Positions 36,604-64,000 of a DNA stretch of 64,000 nt are shown here, piece after piece. The notes under the pieces were generated by a model, which did not search any database, had not been told where the DNA came from, and saw only the letters and a list, made by a program, of their open reading frames with translations. The translations under genes were made by a program, and so were the position numbers. How positions within the stretch are numbered: position 1 is the first letter of the stretch; each line of letters begins with the position of its first letter. The DNA is from Batrachochytrium dendrobatidis JAM81 (Eukaryota > Chytridiomycota > Chytridiomycetes > Rhizophydiales), in assembly GCF_000203795.2 (NCBI RefSeq), contig NW_006281099.1:298690-362689 (forward strand), given 5' to 3'.

Positions 36604-39600
36604 TCATAAAGTTGACTGTTTGCAAGAGTTTAAATTGACCATATCTTTCAAAGTTGCTTTTTTGGTATGCTTCAAAACATTTAGAGCTTTTATAGATGCG
36701 TGTTGCTTGGCTAGCTTCAAAGTCGTAGCTTGGGAAGTAGCAAGAACTGTTCCATAAAATACTACCGACGCCTTGTGAAATCCATCGGCATTGCTTTCGT
36801 CACTAAACTCCAACAGTTTAATCATTATTTAGTAAACCCCCCAAATCCAACAGTAAACCCCGAGATGACCGCGAATATTAACAATAAGCTTAAAACAAGC
36901 AGATGTACAGTCATATTAAACTATTACGTACCTTAACTCTAGTTTTTCCGATGAAAATCCCTGAGATTGCACAAAAGCAAACAGTTGCCGAATAGGTGGC
37001 TCAGTAATAGTCTCAAGATTAATATTGCTTTGAATGAAGCTGTGTACATACGGGAAAATCACCAACCGGGTTCTTTCCAGATTGTATCCAGTATCAATAA
37101 ATATTGCTGCAACAATCACCTCAAACACATCACAGAGTACTTTTGGTCCATCAATTGCTTTATCTGCCTGTTTAAATGCATGTTGAGAATGACTATTTTG
37201 AATATAATTAGCATAAAGCACAATAGCTTCCTTGGAGTGCTGAGATAGTTGACTAGATTGCAAAAGGTGCTCGTGTAGTTTTAATGATACTAGTATTTTG
37301 CAAAACGCAGGCTTGCATACCGTCGCTTGAATCATTTTTGAAAGTGAGCATGGGTCTGCATGTTTATAATGTCGATAAAAATATCGTGCAACCAAAATGT
37401 CCATGATTGCGTCGCCCAAGAATTCAAGTCGTTCAAATTTGCTCTTGACAAAATAAAATGGAGTCATGAGGGCAATAAGTAGCAGTTCCGGATTATGAAA
37501 GTTGTATGACAATTTCTGTTGAACATGGTCAACGGTTTCTTGATCCAATCTACTGAGAATGGGGTTTTGCATAGACGATATTTGATGATCGTGCAACTTA
37601 TTAGTGTCGCCGTGTCTAAAACAATGCGGCGGTATCTCATTTATCAGTCTAAAAGTGCGCATCAGATGCAAAGCTGCCTCAACCCCACATTCAAGAAAAT
37701 ATGCACCTAAAAGGGCTTCGATAAAGTCCGACTGCTTTTTTCCACAAAATACACGATTGTCTAAACAATCAACAGATGCGGTAGGTGCTACGAATATCCT
37801 TGTTTCGAAACAAAAAGATGGTGGGGTCCAGGAATTGGATTGAAATGGCGCTGTATTCAGCATGCCAGTCAAACTGTGTTGTTGAGCAATTTCAAAAAGA
37901 TTCTTGTTTGAAACAAGGCCTGATAGTATCGTGGAAAGCTGACCGACTTCATACGACTGGTATGAACTGTGTAAATAATGAGCGACTCCGAATTTTAATA
38001 CCTTGTCCCCCAAAGTCTCGAGTCTTTCATAGTTAGTTATACTATTTGCAGCTGGGGTTGTAAATGCAGACATGAGAGTAGATAGTGGAATTTGCTTTGG
38101 GTATAAACCATACTTTTGATCAAACTCGGCCGCAAGACACGCCGTATGAAGTGAATAAAGAATGGAAGGCAAATAATGAGCTACCATAGTAAGTTTCGCC
38201 GAAATCGGTGATACGCGAAATGCATCTGGAACCAGTTGAGGAAGATTGTCTAGGTTCTGATTATCATCTACACAATTATGTTTGTTTTTGGTGGCTTGAC
38301 ATGAGCGTCTGTAGTCCTTGATATGAGGAATACGTACACATTTAAGTAAATTGGCATTTGGATGATCGACAGTATAGCCTTGAGATGAAGCAATAGCCTG
38401 ATAAGTTGTAATGTGTTGGCCCTTGCCTTTTCCAATAGTGAGCTCAGAATAGGCATTGCAATTTTCACTCCAGCATTTAATCTGATACTTGATATTGTTA
38501 TGAGGAGTATATACTATAATATCTTTGGTTAAATCAACAATAGGTGCTGAAAAACAAGTAGAGTACTTTCCTGGTAAATTATGCAATGGGGATATTTCAT
38601 TGACCAATTTCCGCAAAGAACTGTGATCATAGCGAGGATCAGAAAAAATACGATATAGACTCTGATGGCTAGGAAAGCAAGCGTTTGGTGGAGTAATTCC
38701 AGAATCAATCACATTTTGAACAGTAATCAAGGAATGGGGTTCAAGAACGGTAGTGCACAATGATACCCATTCAGAGAAGCTAACCTCGCGTCTAGAGTTG
38801 ACCAATTCTACCAAATCCCAATTAATGGCCCAATCACAACCAGATTGCCGGTACATGGGAACCACTTCATAATAAAGATTCGAATTTGAATCATTGTTAG
38901 AACAGTCGTTTTTTTTACTTGTAGATGCACTCAAAGACTCGTCAAATACACAGTTACAACGATCATGATTTTGAAGCACTAGATTCCAAAACTGATGCTG
39001 AAATCGAAGAATCTGCTCATATTCTTGAGCAGAAAACTTTGTCTCAGTTGCAGTAGTCACTTTGCCAGATTTACTCCATGGATGGATATCGACGGGTGTA
39101 TACGAAAAAGAAAGATCACACCATAATTCTGTAGCGCACAACGCATTACCAGGAAGTGCGCCAGTTGTGAGCAGCGCCAGTGTAGAGTCGGTCTGGAGCT
39201 GATCAGATGAACTGTCGGTTAACAAAGCGGCAGCAGACTGCAATACTAAAGATGCATTAGAGTGAGTGGTATTTATGTCAATGACCGTGACAAATCTTGA
39301 ATGCGTTTCTGTTTTATTAGTTGTACCCAACTTGGACGAAAAGTTGCTAAATGAGTGTGGAATAGAGCGATGATGGCCAGTCTCATGGTTGGTATGGTTT
39401 TGTGGAAGTTGATTTGAATGACTATCTGGCAAAACAATATTGGAATGCACGGTTTTTGTAGCGTCGATTGTAGATTTAGAGAGGCTTTTAACAGGCGTCC
39501 GAGGCTGTAAGCGTTCGTCCAATTCCCCCATGTTATACAAAACTCGGCATGCCTCGAGAGCAGAGTCTTCACAAGCAAGTTTTTCAGTAAGCTGCCACAT

Positions 39601-42168
39601 TCCAATAATTGTATCAATTTTGAGAGTGAGCCATTGTGGAATCTTCACTACGCATATATATCCAATATTTGGCTCCTTTGGGCACATCTTTGCTACCATT
39701 TCTGAATCTGATAAATCTATATCAAATCTAGTCGATCCACTATACAACAAACCATCAGCATTGATACCAGCACCATGTATAATGGTAGAGTTTTCATGCT
39801 TGGGATCAGATTCAGATGTAGCATAGACTTTTTCAAGATACTGTTGCGAGATTTTTAGCAGATACTCGTCCCATGGCATGTAATTTGATATAGACTTGTA
39901 TCCATTTTTAACGGTTTGGTATATAGATGTTGGCCAATCCAACTGTTCCGAGTTTGATTTAGAAACAAGGTAAAAATCTAAAACTCTCTTTGCATCGGCC
40001 CGAGCTAAAATCGTGCCTTTGCGAGTACGAAATACACTTTTGCGTTTACCAAACAATAGTGGTCCAACCAAGTCATCTACGTGTGTTGTTTTCACAAGTG
40101 TTAAAAATGGTACCATGTCGTTTTGCAAATCTTCTTGATGACTGCTTTTTTTGAATCGATATAGCTTTTGAACCACCGAGCAAGAAAAGGAAGCAATTGA
40201 CTCTGCTTTAGCAATTGCTTTTTTCAGTTTTGAGTGTCCTTTTGCTACCATTACAATAAACTGTGAACCAGGTACGCCTCCAGTATATCCCTTCAATCTC
40301 TCATAACAGAGCTGCTTGCGTGGCCAATCGAATAAAATAACCAGCCCACACTTTGGTCTAGTGACAATAAAACTATTAGCAGACATATCAACACGTAAAT
40401 GTATAAATAATCAGCAACATCACTTACAAATGACACCTGTTTTGTCCAAAATTCGAAACAACAAGCACATTCAATTCTCGAGATTTGAATCTCTGAAGAG
40501 TGTTTTGAGTAGAATTAGTGCCTTTTTCAAAAGCATGGTCTACCACAGAGTGCGAAACAGAATAGCTGGGTGATTCAGTGTTCATCATGTGAATAGTTGA
40601 CCCATTAATAAATCCACATCTAATAAACGGATACTTTTGAAAAGCACTACATTGGATGAGATTGCATAGTTTTTCTGCAGTTTGATCATCATGCACATAG
40701 ACCAAAGATTGAAAGGGTTGTTTACCAAAATTGATAGTGTCAGTGGATTGATTATGATTTTTTGCAAGTGTTTTAAGGAGTGTATGCACTTTGATGCTGA
40801 TATCAGCAGTGGGAATCTCAGATATAGACGTGTAATCATTCTGACTGGGCAAAGAATTGGTGCTGCTGGATTTTAAACTTGATTGCCAATCAGTGTCGGT
40901 AAAAGTATCGTCAAGATGCACTGCCTTTCGTTTTTTTGAAGCAGCTGCGTGTGTAACACCAAGGATCTCTTTGACCAACTTGATCGTGCACCACACACCC
41001 AATTCTGAAAAAGTTGCTCGGATCCTTTTTAATTGTTTTTCAGTGACTATCAAGCGCTTTGAATCTATGGATACCGTATCATGTTGTAGTTGAATGAAAT
41101 GCTGAGCTGCTGCTATTTCGTCATCGAGCTGTTGTGTAGAAACAGTGTACGATTCATCTGAAAATGCATTGCCACCATCTCTCGCCTGTGGGAGCTTGCA
41201 AAAATAGCTTTGCAGTTCTTTTCTATCATGAGAATCAGTTGAATGAAAAGTAAAAAGGCTATTGAAATCATTGGTGGTTGAATCATATTCAAGCACTGTG
41301 ACATCTGTGTTTCTGGGCTGAATATTGTCTTGACGTCTATCTGGGACTACTACGGTCTGACAACTAAACATTACCATTAAATCTTTCAAATTTTTCTCCA
41401 GATCTTTCAAATTCATAGATATAGAGTGGATAGGTATGGAAGAAACCACAAAGATCTTGGGTCGTGGAGAACGGACTGGGATATGGCAATAAAATCCGTT
41501 CATAATAGCCTGATGCTCCTGTGCATTACGAGAATGGTGGCATTCATCGAATATAATCAAGCATATATGCTTGGAAAGATCGAGATATTTTCGAGTCAAT
41601 AAATTGACGAATAGCTGTTGTGGCATGACCAGAACTTGGCTGTTTGAAAACTCTTTTTGCCAGTGATTGTAATCAAGATGTGATATAGAACTGCTTTCCT
41701 CCCCAGAATAACCCCTGACTACTAGATCGGTATACTGATGGATTTCATTTGCCTTTTCCTTGACAGCTCCTTTGGTTCCAACACATACAATAGTCTGAAT
41801 TCAATCTAGGTTAGTATCGTAATAAGCATACTACACAAGCCAGCAAGTGCTTTTAAATTTGAACACAATGGTAAGCCCAATTAAAAATGGACCCACTGGA
41901 ATACTTGAATCACCATTACCTTGCGAGAGTTCAAGGTTTCTGAGTTCTGGATGTGATAGGTCGAAACAGCCAAGTTGTTTTCACTGGTGGAATAGGTTTG
42001 TTGAGAAGGCTGAACATGTACAAGTGGTAGTTTCTCGGTAATTGCATCAATCAGCATGATAGAAACCAGAGTTTTGTAGTCATTTGAATCCATAAAGGCA
42101 ATTACATTGTGGTGGATTGCCTCTTCATATACTCGGATCTGATATGGTTTAATATTTTCTTCAAGCAT
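36604..42168 (-). CDS. DCL: Dicer-like ribonuclease III
   Basis: RNA-interference enzyme that cuts double-stranded RNA into siRNAs. Four exons (42168-41920, 41794-40437, 40372-36932, 36802-36604) join in frame to 1748 residues. The N-terminal helicase has DECH at about residue 165, but the P-loop position reads DSNDYKT (residues 27-33), and motifs V and VI are also changed. The helicase C lobe (RFKSRELNVLVVSNFGQNS) is followed by a dimerisation/PAZ-like middle region (IVDLTKDIIVYTP, HITTYQAIASSQGYTVDHPN). RNase IIIa has NYERLETLGDKVLKF and DFIEALLGAYF. RNase IIIb has KFERLEFLGDAIMDILVARY and CDVFEVIVAAIF. Both carry the acidic catalytic residues. The last exon adds a dsRNA-binding domain (SVVFYGTVLATSQATTLKLA). 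A MITE sits about 90 bp upstream of the start codon. Confidence 0.93.
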
Positions 42169-58992: not shown

Positions 58993-61423
58993 ATTCAAGT
59001 GCTTGCCCATGATCCGACTCTAATGGTGATGCAGGAAGAGGCTGGGAAGTCGTATCTGTTGAAAGTGAATGACCCGAACTCACAAAATCACAAGTGCTCT
59101 GTCCTACAATCAGTGGCTCTTCCAAGGTCAGATCTAACAACTGTGCTGAAATCGGTGCATCCGGTAATGCTCTTGCGCTGGACATGGATGTTGCAATAGA
59201 ACTACTTCGCCTTAATTCTTGGACGTAGTCTCCAAAAATCTCTTCGTATGACTCGATACATGTCTTGACAATCGTCCCGATGCCTGCACCTTGGACGCCA
59301 ATGGCACACATTCCAACATCAAGTACTGGATTATCGCTGTGCACAAAATTGGGCGACCATACAATCGTTAGATTACGTGATGTCATGAGATTGGTTTCGC
59401 TGTGCATGTACACGGCATTGAGGAGATCAAAGAGCTGGCAAAGAATGAGTTGCGTGGGTATCGTTAGACATGGGAGAAACTTTGTTCGGATAAAGTCTAT
59501 CTTGTTGTTTGCTCCTATATATTTCAATGTATACAGCCAATATACATGTTAGAGACATCACGATTGATGTAAATACACGCCAACAGTAGTGACAATCATG
59601 AGACTGAATCAACTTTTGGTACATACGTTCAACCTCACGGACTGTTGGATATAATGACATGTGAACCAATGGTAATGGCAATTCTCGAAACCACAATTTA
59701 AGTAGACTGCACACAGTATGAATGCCACCTAGCTCATCAAAATCCACTGGAAGCCCTTCGTTATATAGGTTTTTGGCTTTGTGCAATGCAGTGAGCGCGG
59801 CAGATTTTCGAAACAATCCCTCAACATCCATACCTGTGCACAACCAATAAATGCATTAGATAATCTGAAGCCATATAATGTAGAATGGGCTCATTGAACT
59901 CGATCATTCATATAGCAAACATACCATTCTTCTTGATATAAGTCACACAATCAAGAAATATAGATGGACATCCTTTTGAGCCATCAACACCCATTAGAAC
60001 ATCCAAGCCCACTTCAAACACCTTTGTGCGGATTTGGCGTGTGGGTCTCCGTGAAAAGGATAAAAACCCAAATGCCTCTTGCTTTTGATTGTATCTAAAA
60101 GTACAACAGTGCATTAAAACTCGAATGATTTAGAAATCAATCTCAATATTACAAGACTCAATATATGATGGGTTTATACGCAACTCTTGAACCGCAGCAG
60201 GCATTTCGAGTTTTTGCATTGGAACTAAAGTTTCTAGTCGTGCAAGACTATCGACCCATACAAGCTTACTAGCAAACTTTGGACTAGAGTCAAATCATAC
60301 AATTCAAAATTAGCCTATATTCTTTAGTTTAGACATGAGATTTAAAGTGATTTTTAAACATTGGCACAACCCAGCTCAACTGGCAGCCTAATAAACAGAT
60401 CAAACATGGTATCAACGCAACACACCTAACAATCATTCCCATGGTTTGCAGCAAAAATTTGGGCCACATGGATGGATGAACCACATAAAGAGCTTTGAGG
60501 TTTTTGCGAATACTTGTGATCCAAACATTTAGAATCATTGTTAGAATGAGTTTGTAACATCAGTGTGGTTTTGAAACTGATCTAATCTCATTGACCTCTT
60601 ACTTTCTGCTAAGTTTTGAATAAGCCTGAAGAGTCCAGCTCCAAGTTGGATAGTATGTGGCTCCGCCCGCAAAAAGAACTAGAGAATACTCATTGACAGA
60701 CAGCGCTTCTAGCCGCTCCAGTAGCAATCTAGTCAAAAACTTTGATAATCAGCTTGACTGAGCAGACACTCCATCAACAACATGATCTGAGCAAAGCTTA
60801 CAAGAGTAGTATATCATAGTTGACGGATTGCGGAGATGGTAAATGACAGCAATAAAAGGCATACATGCTTCGCCCGTTATTGTCTGTGCCTAGTTATAAA
60901 ATAGCATATAGTAGTTTGATTCAATATGTCTGCTCCCAAATACAACATCAAGATGATCGGTAGTGAATAAGCCAATATATGGCTAGTAAGCATTTAGAAT
61001 GTGTTTTTCCCACTCTTGCCAAATGAGCACAAGGGCTAGTTTGTGAATGGCAGACTGAAGGTGCTCAAGTTTGTCAGCTGTGGCTTTGCATACAAGGACA
61101 CATCCATGTAGAGCGTGAAGAAGCGGCTTTCAAGCTTATTCAATGTCAATTGGTGAGCCATTCCGACATGCATGCTGGAAAAGCAGCGGTTCTTCAATGC
61201 ACATTTTCATCCGAATACAAAAGTACGTTTGTGGAAAAGTGACGGAAACACAAGACATGGATTACAGACTGAACACACCTGCACTCCTGAGCAGACTGTC
61301 AGAAAGGGCAGAGCGAATATCTTCGTCAGTCATTTGTTCACCAATATCAATGCAGCAAGGGTTTTTAGCAAGAGATTGTTTGAGCAGACTCGTAGGAGAT
61401 ACTGGAGAGAGATGCAACTGCAT
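58973..61423 (-). CDS. Rho GTPase-activating protein with Sec14/BCH domain (ARHGAP1-like)
   Basis: BCH(Sec14)-RhoGAP protein like animal ARHGAP1/p50RhoGAP, which turns off Rho-family GTPases. Likely start MQLHLSPVSPTSLLKQSLAK at 61423. Small exons give PLLHALHGCVLVCKATADKL and the Sec14/BCH part: LERLEALSVNEYSLVLFAGG, ATYYPTWSWTLQAYSKLSR, ITSIRKNLKALYVVHPSMWP and SPKFASKLVWVDSLARLETL. The RhoGAP domain follows: FEVGLDVLMGVDGSKGCPSI, MDVEGLFRKSAALTALHKAK (arginine finger in GLFRKSA), GGIHTVCSLLKLWFRELPLP and LTIVWSPNFVHSDNPVL (conserved Asn). The Ser-rich tail ends LESKVVFT; the last five residues and TAA (58973-58990) lie in a MITE terminal repeat. Confidence 0.88.
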
Positions 61424-61598
61424 TGAACAACTAGAGCATATACAATGTCGTTGAATGACAATGTTGAAGTCCGTTTGTCAAGTTCGTGTAATCCGCCGTA
61501 CTCACGTGATGATTCGTCTGATAAGCTTTTATGATTTGATTGGTCAGACATTCATGTGTTGTTGGATCAAAAGACTACTTTTATGCACAATGAATCGT

Positions 61599-62171
61599 AT
61601 TCTTGATTTACAGTCGTATTGATGTAAATGGAATACTAAAGGCGTCAAATTACATAATAAACGATCAGTTTCAGATATTACTGGACAACATTGTTTGGTA
61701 AACTCTCTAGTTTATTGGCCTTGTGCTCATTTCGTATCAACTCGACACATGTTTATATTACAGTTTCAATCAGTTTTCAACCCTTGCAAAACATTCAAGA
61801 CTGGCATGAAAACAACTTGCATTTCTGGAATGTGCAATCATTGTTTTTTGAACCAGAGCGCGACGTATGTTTTTAGAATACAAGAGTGGAACTCGTAGAG
61901 TTTGACAACGGTTGAACCCAATATCTGGATTGCAATGGATGGATCTGGTGACTGTGCAATATATGGCTATGCTAAAAGTGAAAAAAGGGACAATTTCAGT
62001 TTGAAGCTAGTGTTATTATAGACGGACATTGTGGTTCAATTGACAATGTCAGTCATGATTAGGAGAGTGAAACAAGTATTCAATGAATAGTCAACCACTG
62101 TTCATCTCGAAACAAAAGAGTCACTGCAAGCTAAATGAAAAAGTGTTCATTTTACATGAATACGATTGTAA
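61599..62171 (-). mobile_element. MITE-like element, copy 11 (left arm of inverted pair)
   Basis: A 573-bp segment that is the near-perfect reverse complement of copy 12 (63302-63873). The element proper runs from CAGTCGTATTGATGTAAATG at 61611 to GTTCATTTTACATGAATACG and ATTG at 62168, with TA on both sides. A further 10 bp of left flank (ATTCTTGATT) is also shared with copy 12. It ends 26 bp before the stop codon of the cytidine deaminase gene. The 61- and 67-codon frames inside are shared with copy 12 only because the DNA is duplicated. Confidence 0.92.
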
Positions 62172-62196
62172 AACAAAATTTAACCTTGGAAACCAA

Positions 62197-63211
62197 CTAT
62201 TTGTCCAAATCCTCGGGTCCAAAACTGTCAGGAAGCAACTCCTTAAGAGATTTGATTTCCACCTTGTCAAAGCTTGCAGAAAACTGATAAACCTAAGATA
62301 CAAGTGTTGTTGTAAATTTGTCAATATAAAACTAGTGAGTAGTTCGTATGCTGTTAAAGGCACAATTTACCTGAATGTGTTTTCCAAACTCGACCATGAA
62401 CTGGCGACAGAATCCACAAGGTGAAATGGCAGCTTCCTTGTCACTATTCAAACATACAAAATACCCGGGTTAACAGCTTCATTGTGGCTCTCAGTTACAC
62501 TCAAAACTTGATCGAGTATAGTGGCATAGATACAAATGCTACACTTACGTGATAACAGCAATTGCCAAAAACTTTTTGTGGCCTTCACTCTAAAAATTCA
62601 AAAAAGTATAAACTCGGTCAGCTTAAACCGATCTACAAGAGCTAAACCAATATCCTGTTAAAAAGTCGAGTGTATCAACATGACTAACCACAGCTTTAAC
62701 AAAGGCAGTTCTTTCAGCACATATGGTTCCTCCGTATGAAGCATTTTCGACATTGCATCCTACAATATATTGAAACAGGGGTAAGTACAACTCGATGACT
62801 TGCTAGGATAGATTTAGTTCAATAAGTTGAATCTATCATTTCAATCATAAAAGACATTGCTTGCCTAGAAAGACTTCGCCGGTAGGAGCCAAAAGAGCAG
62901 CACCGACTCGAAACTTGCTATATGGAGAGTAAGACATCTCCTTGGCTAATTGCAATCCAATTTATAAATAAGGTTATTTATGTATAATCGCAGATACCAA
63001 ATCCATGAAATAAGAATATCATATAGAAAAGGTCTTTAGTTTACCTTGGGTGGCAAACTGAGCCAGTTGCAACTGTACATCCTTGGACAGGACTCCTATT
63101 AGTAAGCCGAGTATGGGTAGGATCAGTAAAGCTACTCTATCTATGAAATCAAAAATCATCAGTACCATTGGGAGTGAGAGTAGCGATGTGTTGAGCAGAC
63201 AGGAACGGCAT
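62197..63211 (-). CDS. CDA: Cytidine deaminase
   Basis: Zinc enzyme of pyrimidine salvage that converts cytidine and deoxycytidine to the uridine forms. The start at 63211 gives [15 protein letters not shown], joined over the intron (about 63166-63097) to [17 protein letters not shown]. Small exons then give [85 protein letters not shown] and [20 protein letters not shown], ending DK at TAG 62197-62199. The catalytic CAE and the PCGxCRQ zinc ligands are intact. About 150 residues, like tetrameric CDAs. An upstream Met at 63285 gives an implausible hydrophobic leader and is not used. The gene is tightly enclosed by MITE copies 11 and 12. Confidence 0.95.
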
Positions 63212-63301
63212 AGTTGACAGTTTGTTGAATTGATGGAAAGTACAACTTGCTTATTGCTTTTACAATACAAGCAAATGCAGTGCACAAACCTTTATAATGA
63301 A

Positions 63302-63873
63302 TTACAATCGTATTCACGTAAAATGAGCACTTTTTCATTTAGCTTGCAGTGACTCTTTTGTTTCGAGATGAACAGTGGTTGACTATTCGTTGAATACTTG
63401 TTTCACTCTCCTAATCATGACTGACATTGTCAATTGAACCACAATGTCCGTCTATAATAACACTAGCTTCAAACTGAAATTGTCCCTTTTTTCACTTTTA
63501 GCATAGCCATATATTGCACAGTCACCAGATCCATCCATTGCAATCCAGATATTGGGTTCAACCGTTGTCAAACTCTACGAGTTCCACTCTTGTATTCTAA
63601 AAACATACGTCGCGCTCTGGTTCAAAAAACAATGATTGCACATTCCAGAAATGCAAGTTGTTTTCATGCCAGTCTTGAATGTTTTGCAAGGGTTGAAAAC
63701 TGATTGAAACTGTAATATAAACATGTGTCGAGTTGATACGAAATGAGCACAAGGCCAATAAACTAGAGAGTTTACCAAACAATGTTGTCCAGTAATATCT
63801 GAAACTGATCGTTTATTATGTAATTTGACGCCTTTAGTATTCCATTTACATCAATACGACTGTAAATCAAGAA
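63302..63873 (+). mobile_element. MITE-like element, copy 12 (right arm of inverted pair)
   Basis: A 572-bp segment, inverted relative to copy 11, starting 91 bp upstream of the cytidine deaminase start codon. Left end CAATCGTATTCACGTAAAAT; right end CATTTACATCAATACGACTG, each next to TA. By eye only a few mismatches to copy 11 were found, two of them near the left end. It also shares the 10-bp flank of copy 11 (AATCAAGAAT on this strand). Its right edge is 8 bp from the stop codon of the next gene. Confidence 0.92.
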
Positions 63874-63880
63874 TCACTAA

Positions 63881-64000
63881 ACTAGGTGAAATTAGTTATC
63901 CAGCAACTGAGAATTAGACCTTGGTCATCAGATAAAGGCTTGATGATCTGGTCACCAGTCCAAAATGTTCCGACTAGAATACGTTTTCTATGCTCAACAC
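63881..64000 (-). CDS. C-terminal exon of an unidentified gene, partial
   Basis: An open frame on the minus strand enters from the right edge and stops at TAG 63881-63883. It includes RKRILVGTFWTGDQIIKPLS then DDQGLILSCWITNFT. The composition looks like real protein, but 38 residues are too few to name the family. The stop codon lies just outside MITE copy 12. Confidence 0.4.

What the first reader, a model, noticed from the sequence alone, without database searches (positions are those of the whole stretch)
61599..63873. Cytidine deaminase enclosed by a near-identical inverted element pair
Two 572-573 bp copies in opposite orientation flank CDA, leaving 26 bp on the 3' side and 91 bp on the 5' side. 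The arrangement resembles a composite transposon carrying one host gene, or a gene whose promoter and terminator both come from elements. The shared 10-bp flank beyond the terminal repeats argues against two independent insertions and for a segmental duplication/inversion or gene conversion. The transcript could form a long hairpin, or the locus could produce dsRNA that the nearby Dicer could process.
Basis: partly seen in the sequence, partly recalled or inferred. Interest (0 to 1): 0.8.

Follow-up and report, generated by a model that had tools for sequence, protein, structure and literature searches.

The report
Gene framed by self-matching mirror repeats
In a chytrid fungus that infects amphibians, the cytidine deaminase gene sits between two almost identical mirror-image copies of a short transposon-like element, one of 22 neighbouring pairs examined here, and the two were likely made alike by the cell copying one onto the other during DNA repair, which would let such pairs flip or silence the gene between them.

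Summary
In detail: two 573-bp arms (61599-62171, 63302-63874) in opposite orientation differ at 3 sites and enclose a 7-exon cytidine deaminase gene (CDA, 62197-63211). The genome is taken to be Batrachochytrium dendrobatidis JAM81. Each arm is a 564-bp member of an old, common element family with 21-bp terminal inverted repeats (8% of this window) plus 9 bp of shared outer flank. Distant copies are mostly 65-80% alike. Near-identical neighbouring copies, inverted or direct and 0.5-25 kb apart, recur. Of 22 pairs inspected, 6 are mosaics whose identity stops inside both elements and 7 share 7 bp or more beyond the element; precise transposition makes neither. Six copies without a local partner had no scored match above 80% over 150 bp. 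The best reading is local, homology-driven copying (gene conversion) between neighbouring elements. A composite transposon is not supported: one CDA locus was found. Local transposition remains a rival for the 8 element-exact pairs, and one dispersed near-identical subfamily shows that recent transposition likely occurred. Inversion of CDA and dsRNA from the arms are untested predictions. New variant of a known kind, moderately interesting.

The parts
61599..62171 (+). Left arm: 564-bp element (61608-62171) plus 9 bp of outer flank shared with the right arm
   Evidence: Self-comparison and profile hit over model 1-520 of 520
63302..63874 (-). Right arm: the same element in opposite orientation (63302-63865) plus the same 9 bp of outer flank
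   Evidence: 570 of 573 bases identical to the left arm
61599..61607 (.). 9-bp outer flank shared by both arms (left copy), outside the element
   Evidence: Alignment of the pair with flanks; flanks of 13 family copies show no common motif by eye
63866..63874 (.). 9-bp outer flank shared by both arms (right copy)
   Evidence: Alignment of the pair with flanks
62197..63211 (-). Cytidine deaminase gene, 7 exons, 152 aa, one GC-AG intron
   Evidence: Exon model translates exactly to P0001; PF00383 and PF08211; only matches in the genome are at this locus
61608..61628 (+). Outer 21-bp terminal inverted repeat of the left element
   Evidence: Motif search in L031
62151..62171 (-). Inner terminal inverted repeat of the left element, 25 bp from the CDA stop codon
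   Evidence: Motif search in L031; gap
63302..63322 (+). Inner terminal inverted repeat of the right element, 90 bp from the CDA start codon
   Evidence: Motif search in L031; gap
63845..63865 (-). Outer terminal inverted repeat of the right element
   Evidence: Motif search in L031

Best explanation
The cytidine deaminase gene lies between two oppositely oriented, near-identical copies of a common transposon-like element that were likely made alike by local gene conversion, in which repair would have copied one neighbour onto the other together with 9 bp of its flank. The elements would have inserted separately long ago, like other family members that are now mostly 65-80% alike. Later a break in one copy would have been repaired from the copy 1.1 kb away, with synthesis running through the element and a few bases past its outer end. 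The same process would explain the other neighbouring pairs, in both orientations, including mosaics where only part of the two elements is alike. Shown here: the pair, the family, the recurrence of local pairs, the mosaics and the shared flanks. Inferred: the repair mechanism, its direction and its timing. Predicted and untested: crossover between the arms would invert CDA, and read-through RNA would fold into a hairpin of about 570 bp that Dicer could cut.
For: The arms are 99.5% identical while distant copies are mostly 65-80% alike. Identity runs 9 bp past the outer end, which a precise transposon would not carry. Near-identity is concentrated among neighbours: 7 of 13 alignments of at least 100 bp between copies under 10 kb apart reach 95%, against 1 of 500 for distant ones; 29 of 59 hit pairs within 25 kb share a footprint and similar score, against 79 of 5090, and 22 of the 24 distinct near pairs proved at least 88% identical. 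Of 22 local pairs, 13 inverted and 9 direct, 6 have identity that stops more than 25 bp inside both elements and 7 run 7 bp or more past the element (end positions corrected with the terminal repeats). In the C6 pair both block ends lie inside. Six copies without a local partner had no scored match above 80% over 150 bp. Mitotic recombination with loss of heterozygosity is reported for the species (PMC2680619, passages).
Against: The CDA pair itself is not a mosaic: its identity covers the whole element. 8 of 22 pairs are element-exact, as recent transposition would give. A dispersed subfamily on five contigs is 89-99% alike, so recent transposition likely occurred. Two inter-contig segmental duplications exist. 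The loci were chosen by similarity searches, so the paired fraction is not an unbiased rate; in the window itself 2 of 12 copies are paired this way. No second strain was available.
Confidence: 0.63

Rival explanations
1. Recent local transposition: one element hopped a short distance and inserted in the opposite orientation on the other side of CDA, and the two copies have had little time to diverge.
For: 8 of 22 pairs are element-exact, and a dispersed subfamily on C10, C27, C7, C15 and C12 is 89-99% alike, with a C10/C7 block of 484 bp that matches the element's extent. Copies carry terminal inverted repeats.
Against: The CDA arms share 9 bp beyond the element. Six pairs are alike over only part of two elements, which whole-element movement does not make.
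Confidence: 0.2
2. One-off templated or segmental inverted duplication: a repair or replication error copied the element with 9 bp of flank to the other side of CDA, where no element had been before.
For: The copied block is not element-precise at its outer end. Other pairs carry longer flanks (C31, C4) or belong to longer duplicated blocks (C1:3015/3038, C12:843/852).
Against: The inner ends of the CDA arms stop exactly at the element end. Mosaic pairs show copying onto elements that already existed.
Confidence: 0.13
3. Composite transposon: the two elements move together and carry CDA as cargo.
For: Two inverted elements flank one gene.
Against: The CDA protein matches one locus in the genome. 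No direct repeat abuts the unit (sequence). Other inverted pairs enclose unrelated ordinary genes.
Confidence: 0.02
4. Assembly artefact: one element was placed twice around CDA by the assembler.
For: No raw reads could be inspected.
Against: Flanks on the two sides differ, the arms differ at 3 sites, and the pattern recurs at many loci with different spacing.
Confidence: 0.02

Closest known systems
Arm-to-arm gene conversion in palindromes of mammalian sex chromosomes (PMC8981503, start of the abstract seen in the listing)
   Same: Inverted repeats with arms above 99% identical, explained there by frequent gene conversion
   Different: Those palindromes are large; here the arms are about 0.6-kb mobile-element copies and the gene lies in the spacer. 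Conversion at the CDA pair is inferred, not observed.
Miniature inverted-repeat elements of Tc1/mariner type (Stowaway and similar; the general features are recalled, listings)
   Same: 400-650 bp, 21-bp terminal inverted repeats, TA-rich ends, no Pfam domain found in the arm frames tested, many copies near genes
   Different: A conserved internal core, and neighbouring copies that are near-identical while distant ones are diverged
Ectopic recombination between transposon copies causing inversions, such as Galileo in Drosophila (PMC10990002, start of the abstract in the listing)
   Same: Homologous recombination between separate element copies
   Different: There the result is large inversions by crossover; here the trace is short copied tracts, and inversion is only predicted
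Composite transposon
   Same: A gene between two copies of one element
   Different: No sign that the unit moves: one CDA locus found, no direct repeat abutting the unit

Membership tests
Miniature inverted-repeat transposable element (Tc1/mariner type) | Terminal inverted repeats | tested here: met
   21-bp repeats at both ends of both arms and of many copies
Miniature inverted-repeat transposable element (Tc1/mariner type) | TA target-site duplication | tested here: inconclusive
   Of 13 copies, 10 begin TTA and 11 end TAA, but no empty site was available for comparison
Miniature inverted-repeat transposable element (Tc1/mariner type) | No coding capacity | tested here: met
   Three of the arm's longer open frames scanned: no Pfam match over cut-off
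Miniature inverted-repeat transposable element (Tc1/mariner type) | An autonomous relative with matching ends | tested here: inconclusive
   24 DDE_3 matches in the genome; one lies within a family-like copy in L064 but falls below cut-off when its frame is scanned alone
Composite transposon | The unit occurs at more than one place or is known to move | tested here: not met
   CDA protein matches one locus only
Composite transposon | Direct target repeat outside the two elements | tested here: not met
   The bases abutting the arms differ (sequence)
Inverted repeat homogenised by arm-to-arm gene conversion | Arms far more alike than either is to other copies | tested here: met
   99.5% between the arms; 76-78% over about 180 bp to the next relatives
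Inverted repeat homogenised by arm-to-arm gene conversion | Tract ends independent of element ends | tested here: inconclusive
   At CDA one end is exact and one runs 9 bp past; clear tract ends inside both elements in 6 of 22 sister pairs
Inverted repeat homogenised by arm-to-arm gene conversion | Both elements older than the homogenisation, shown in another strain or species | not testable with these tools

The most novel reading that the evidence does not exclude
An old family of scattered short elements in this mainly clonal fungus now evolves less by jumping than by neighbour-to-neighbour copying, which keeps resetting local pairs to near identity and so surrounds ordinary genes with long mirror repeats. 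Such pairs act as standing switches: crossover flips the enclosed gene, and read-through makes long hairpin RNA. In a species reported to have Dicer and Argonaute but no RNA-dependent RNA polymerase, such hairpins would be the main native source of silencing RNA.
Probability: 0.15. Interest if true: 0.8.

Novelty: new variant of a known kind. Interest (0 to 1): 0.46.

Why it matters
One genome here holds many scattered element pairs with readable tract ends, at spacings of about 0.5-25 kb and in both orientations. That would make it possible to measure how repair copying depends on distance and orientation in a fungus reported to reproduce mainly asexually (PMC2680619, passages). The inverted pairs surround ordinary genes: CDA, and in the four other intervals scanned with Pfam a ribosomal L18a/L20 protein, a TPR protein, a CAP-Gly protein and a mitochondrial carrier. 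They are candidate sites for gene inversion between strains, and candidate hairpin sources in a species reported to have Dicer and Argonaute but no RdRP (PMC9926174, passages).

Tried and rejected
Rfam search of 61400-64000 at E up to 1: no match among 4227 families. tRNA search with the bacterial code: none. Pfam DDE_1: no match, but no control genome gave one either, so this shows nothing. Bacterial promoter/terminator scan: 9 promoter-like sites against 8.2 expected and 1 terminator-like against 1.4, uninformative for a fungus. Composite transposon: rejected, see the rivals. The idea that the 9-bp flank belongs to the element was dropped because flanks of 13 copies show no common motif by eye. 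An unselected long stretch for a clean estimate of the paired fraction was not obtained, so no genome-wide rate is given. Literature: searches for Batrachochytrium with MITE, with repeats and Dicer, with gene conversion and LOH, and with miniature inverted-repeat / ectopic recombination / terminal inverted repeats (the last with any 2 of 4 terms), and general searches, showed in their listed rows no paper on such pairs in this fungus; several searches held more papers than were listed. The library holds only openly licensed papers. Passages were read in PMC9926174, PMC6572847 and PMC2680619; all other papers were seen as listings only.

Rows dropped before a count: 40 of the 312 rows answered were left out, namely 8 rows of the queries themselves (both CDA arms included) and 32 short secondary pieces of copies, leaving 272. 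In one search, profile hits of about 60 bp or less were left out.

Full report
What was checked. Between them lies a cytidine deaminase gene on the minus strand. A 7-exon model (62197-63211, one GC-AG intron, the rest GT-AG) gives exactly the 152-aa protein P0001, named by a source as a B. dendrobatidis protein, with cytidine deaminase domains. The window's contig C1 (4,429,270 bases) has the length recorded for the contig of P0002, a B. dendrobatidis JAM81 protein, so the genome is taken to be strain JAM81. The gene ends 25 bp from the left arm and starts 90 bp from the right arm.

What the arms are. Each arm holds a complete element of 564 bp with 21-bp terminal inverted repeats. A profile built from 13 full copies gives 13 hit rows over 60 bp in this window, that is 12 copies, some partial, covering 5141 of 64000 bases. 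In seven genome searches the first look gave 51 to 665 candidates per query, of which 40 were scored each time, so the family is large but its size was not measured. Distant copies are mostly 65-80% alike. None of the three arm frames scanned has a Pfam match over cut-off. One family-like copy, in L064, contains a stretch that matches the DDE_3 transposase family in the genome search (32.7 bits, one in-frame TGA) but only weakly when its frame is scanned alone (14.3 bits against a cut-off of 28.6). A DDE_3-type (Tc1/mariner-like) ancestor is a lead and is not shown.

The pair is one of many. Self-comparison of the first fetched loci showed six further near-identical local pairs. In that set plus the window, 7 of 13 alignments of 100 bp or more between copies closer than 10 kb were at least 95% identical, against 1 of 500 between distant copies, and that 1 extends far beyond the element. 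From, 272 of 312 rows were compared (8 query rows and 32 secondary pieces left out). Of 59 pairs of hits within 25 kb, 29 had the same footprint on the query and a similar score, against 79 of 5090 distant pairs. The 29 reduce to 24 distinct pairs. When read, 22 of these were at least 88% identical (21 at least 95%); the other two were the CDA arms against a third copy 2.2 kb beyond the right arm, about 78% alike. These counts are not independent and the loci were chosen by similarity, so they show the pattern and not its rate. In the window itself, 2 of 12 copies are paired this way.

How the pairs differ from plain transposition. For 22 local pairs, 13 inverted and 9 direct, I compared the ends of the identity block with the ends of the elements. 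In 6 the block stops more than 25 bp inside both elements, which go on as family members. For five of these the outside part was aligned, and 70-84% of aligned bases match, with many gaps, which flatters the figure. In the C6 pair both block ends are inside. In 7 pairs the block runs 7 bp or more past the element in both copies. Among them is the CDA pair (9 bp at the outer end, exact at the inner end), and two of the seven (C1:3015/3038, C12:843/852) appear to belong to longer duplicated blocks. In the C33 and C5:486/490 pairs the overrun is 7 bp once the terminal repeat is placed by its motif. In 8 pairs the block is element-exact to within about 16 bp. One (C15:677/687) could not be judged, because the fetched stretches end there. 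Precise cut-and-paste transposition explains only the 8.

Controls and contrary results. Six copies without a known local partner, five in or beside the window and one on C3, were searched against the whole genome and had no match above 80% over 150 bp or more, though short stretches reach higher (only the 40 best candidates of each were scored). Against a purely local process stand a dispersed subfamily on C10, C27, C7 (two copies), C15 and C12, 89-99% alike, and two inter-contig duplications, C1:858/C32:420 and C1:1681/C21:776, whose blocks reach the ends of the fetched stretches. So some members likely transposed recently, and local hopping cannot be excluded for any single element-exact pair.

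What lies inside other inverted pairs. Of five other inverted pairs whose interval was read (L033, L053, L054, L066, L067), four were scanned with Pfam. L066 encloses a ribosomal L18a/L20 gene; L067 a TPR protein with a PB1 domain just below cut-off; L053 a ubiquitin-like plus CAP-Gly protein and, below cut-off, a YBL028C-like gene; L054 a mitochondrial carrier and a leucine-rich-repeat protein. L033's 500-bp interval was not scanned. The enclosed genes are ordinary and unrelated, and there is no sign that CDA is cargo. The CDA protein's four exon matches in the genome all lie at this locus.

Mechanism. The best single reading is homology-directed repair copying between neighbouring elements. 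Repair begun in one element uses the neighbour as template, and synthesis sometimes stops inside the element (mosaic) and sometimes overruns it (shared flank). The direction at CDA is unknown. The 3 differences all lie within 88 bp of the inner end, as expected if the tract faded there (chance 0.004). Mitotic recombination with loss of heterozygosity is reported for this species (PMC2680619, passages), which makes such copying plausible. Predicted consequences, all untested, are inversion of CDA by crossover between the arms, element-derived transcript ends, and a hairpin from read-through RNA (the inner 150 nt of the two arms pair at -256.7 kcal/mol in a duplex calculation). A Dicer-like gene is encoded in this window: RNase III and Dicer-dimer domains at 36916-40386, with a helicase-like match just below cut-off at 40424-41626. 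PMC9926174 (passages) reports Dicer and Argonaute but no RdRP in this species and suggests dsRNA-mediated control of transposons.

Verdict. The composite transposon is rejected. The phenomenon is wider than the one locus. It is a new variant of a known kind, gene conversion between repeats, and one comparison between strains could settle the claim.

Noticed in passing
window 36916-41626, minus strand: Dicer-like gene: two RNase III stretches and a Dicer-dimerisation domain, with a helicase-like match just below cut-off upstream.
   Followed up: partly
L064 2036-2774 (C4:449935-450673): A longer family-like copy interrupted by a DDE_3 transposase-like stretch, possibly a decayed relative of the autonomous element.
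   Followed up: partly
C10:171592-172075, C27:1077651-1078142, C7:371865-372348, C7:524844-525329, C15:466135-466489, C12:1211775-1212133: Six copies of the family on five contigs, 89-99% alike: a dispersed, likely recently moved subfamily, unlike the local pairs.
   Followed up: partly
C1:857854-858750 / C32:419700-420596; C1:1680939-1682234 / C21:775600-776895: Two near-identical stretches between contigs that run beyond the element, 99.6% over 897 bp and 98.8% over 1296 bp, cut off by the fetched ends.
   Followed up: no
C5:422876-448400: A local cluster of four family copies within about 25 kb, 89-99% alike pair by pair over 384-533 bp.
   Followed up: partly
window 62197-63211: The public JAM81 gene model of CDA (P0002, 163 aa) is only 91% identical to my exon model, while P0001 of another record is identical; the GC-AG intron may have misled the older model.
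   Followed up: no
C27:737750-746890: Spaced direct copies of a longer unit carrying the family's end: three 97-98% alike over 767-888 bp and a fourth 91-92% alike over 144 bp.
   Followed up: no
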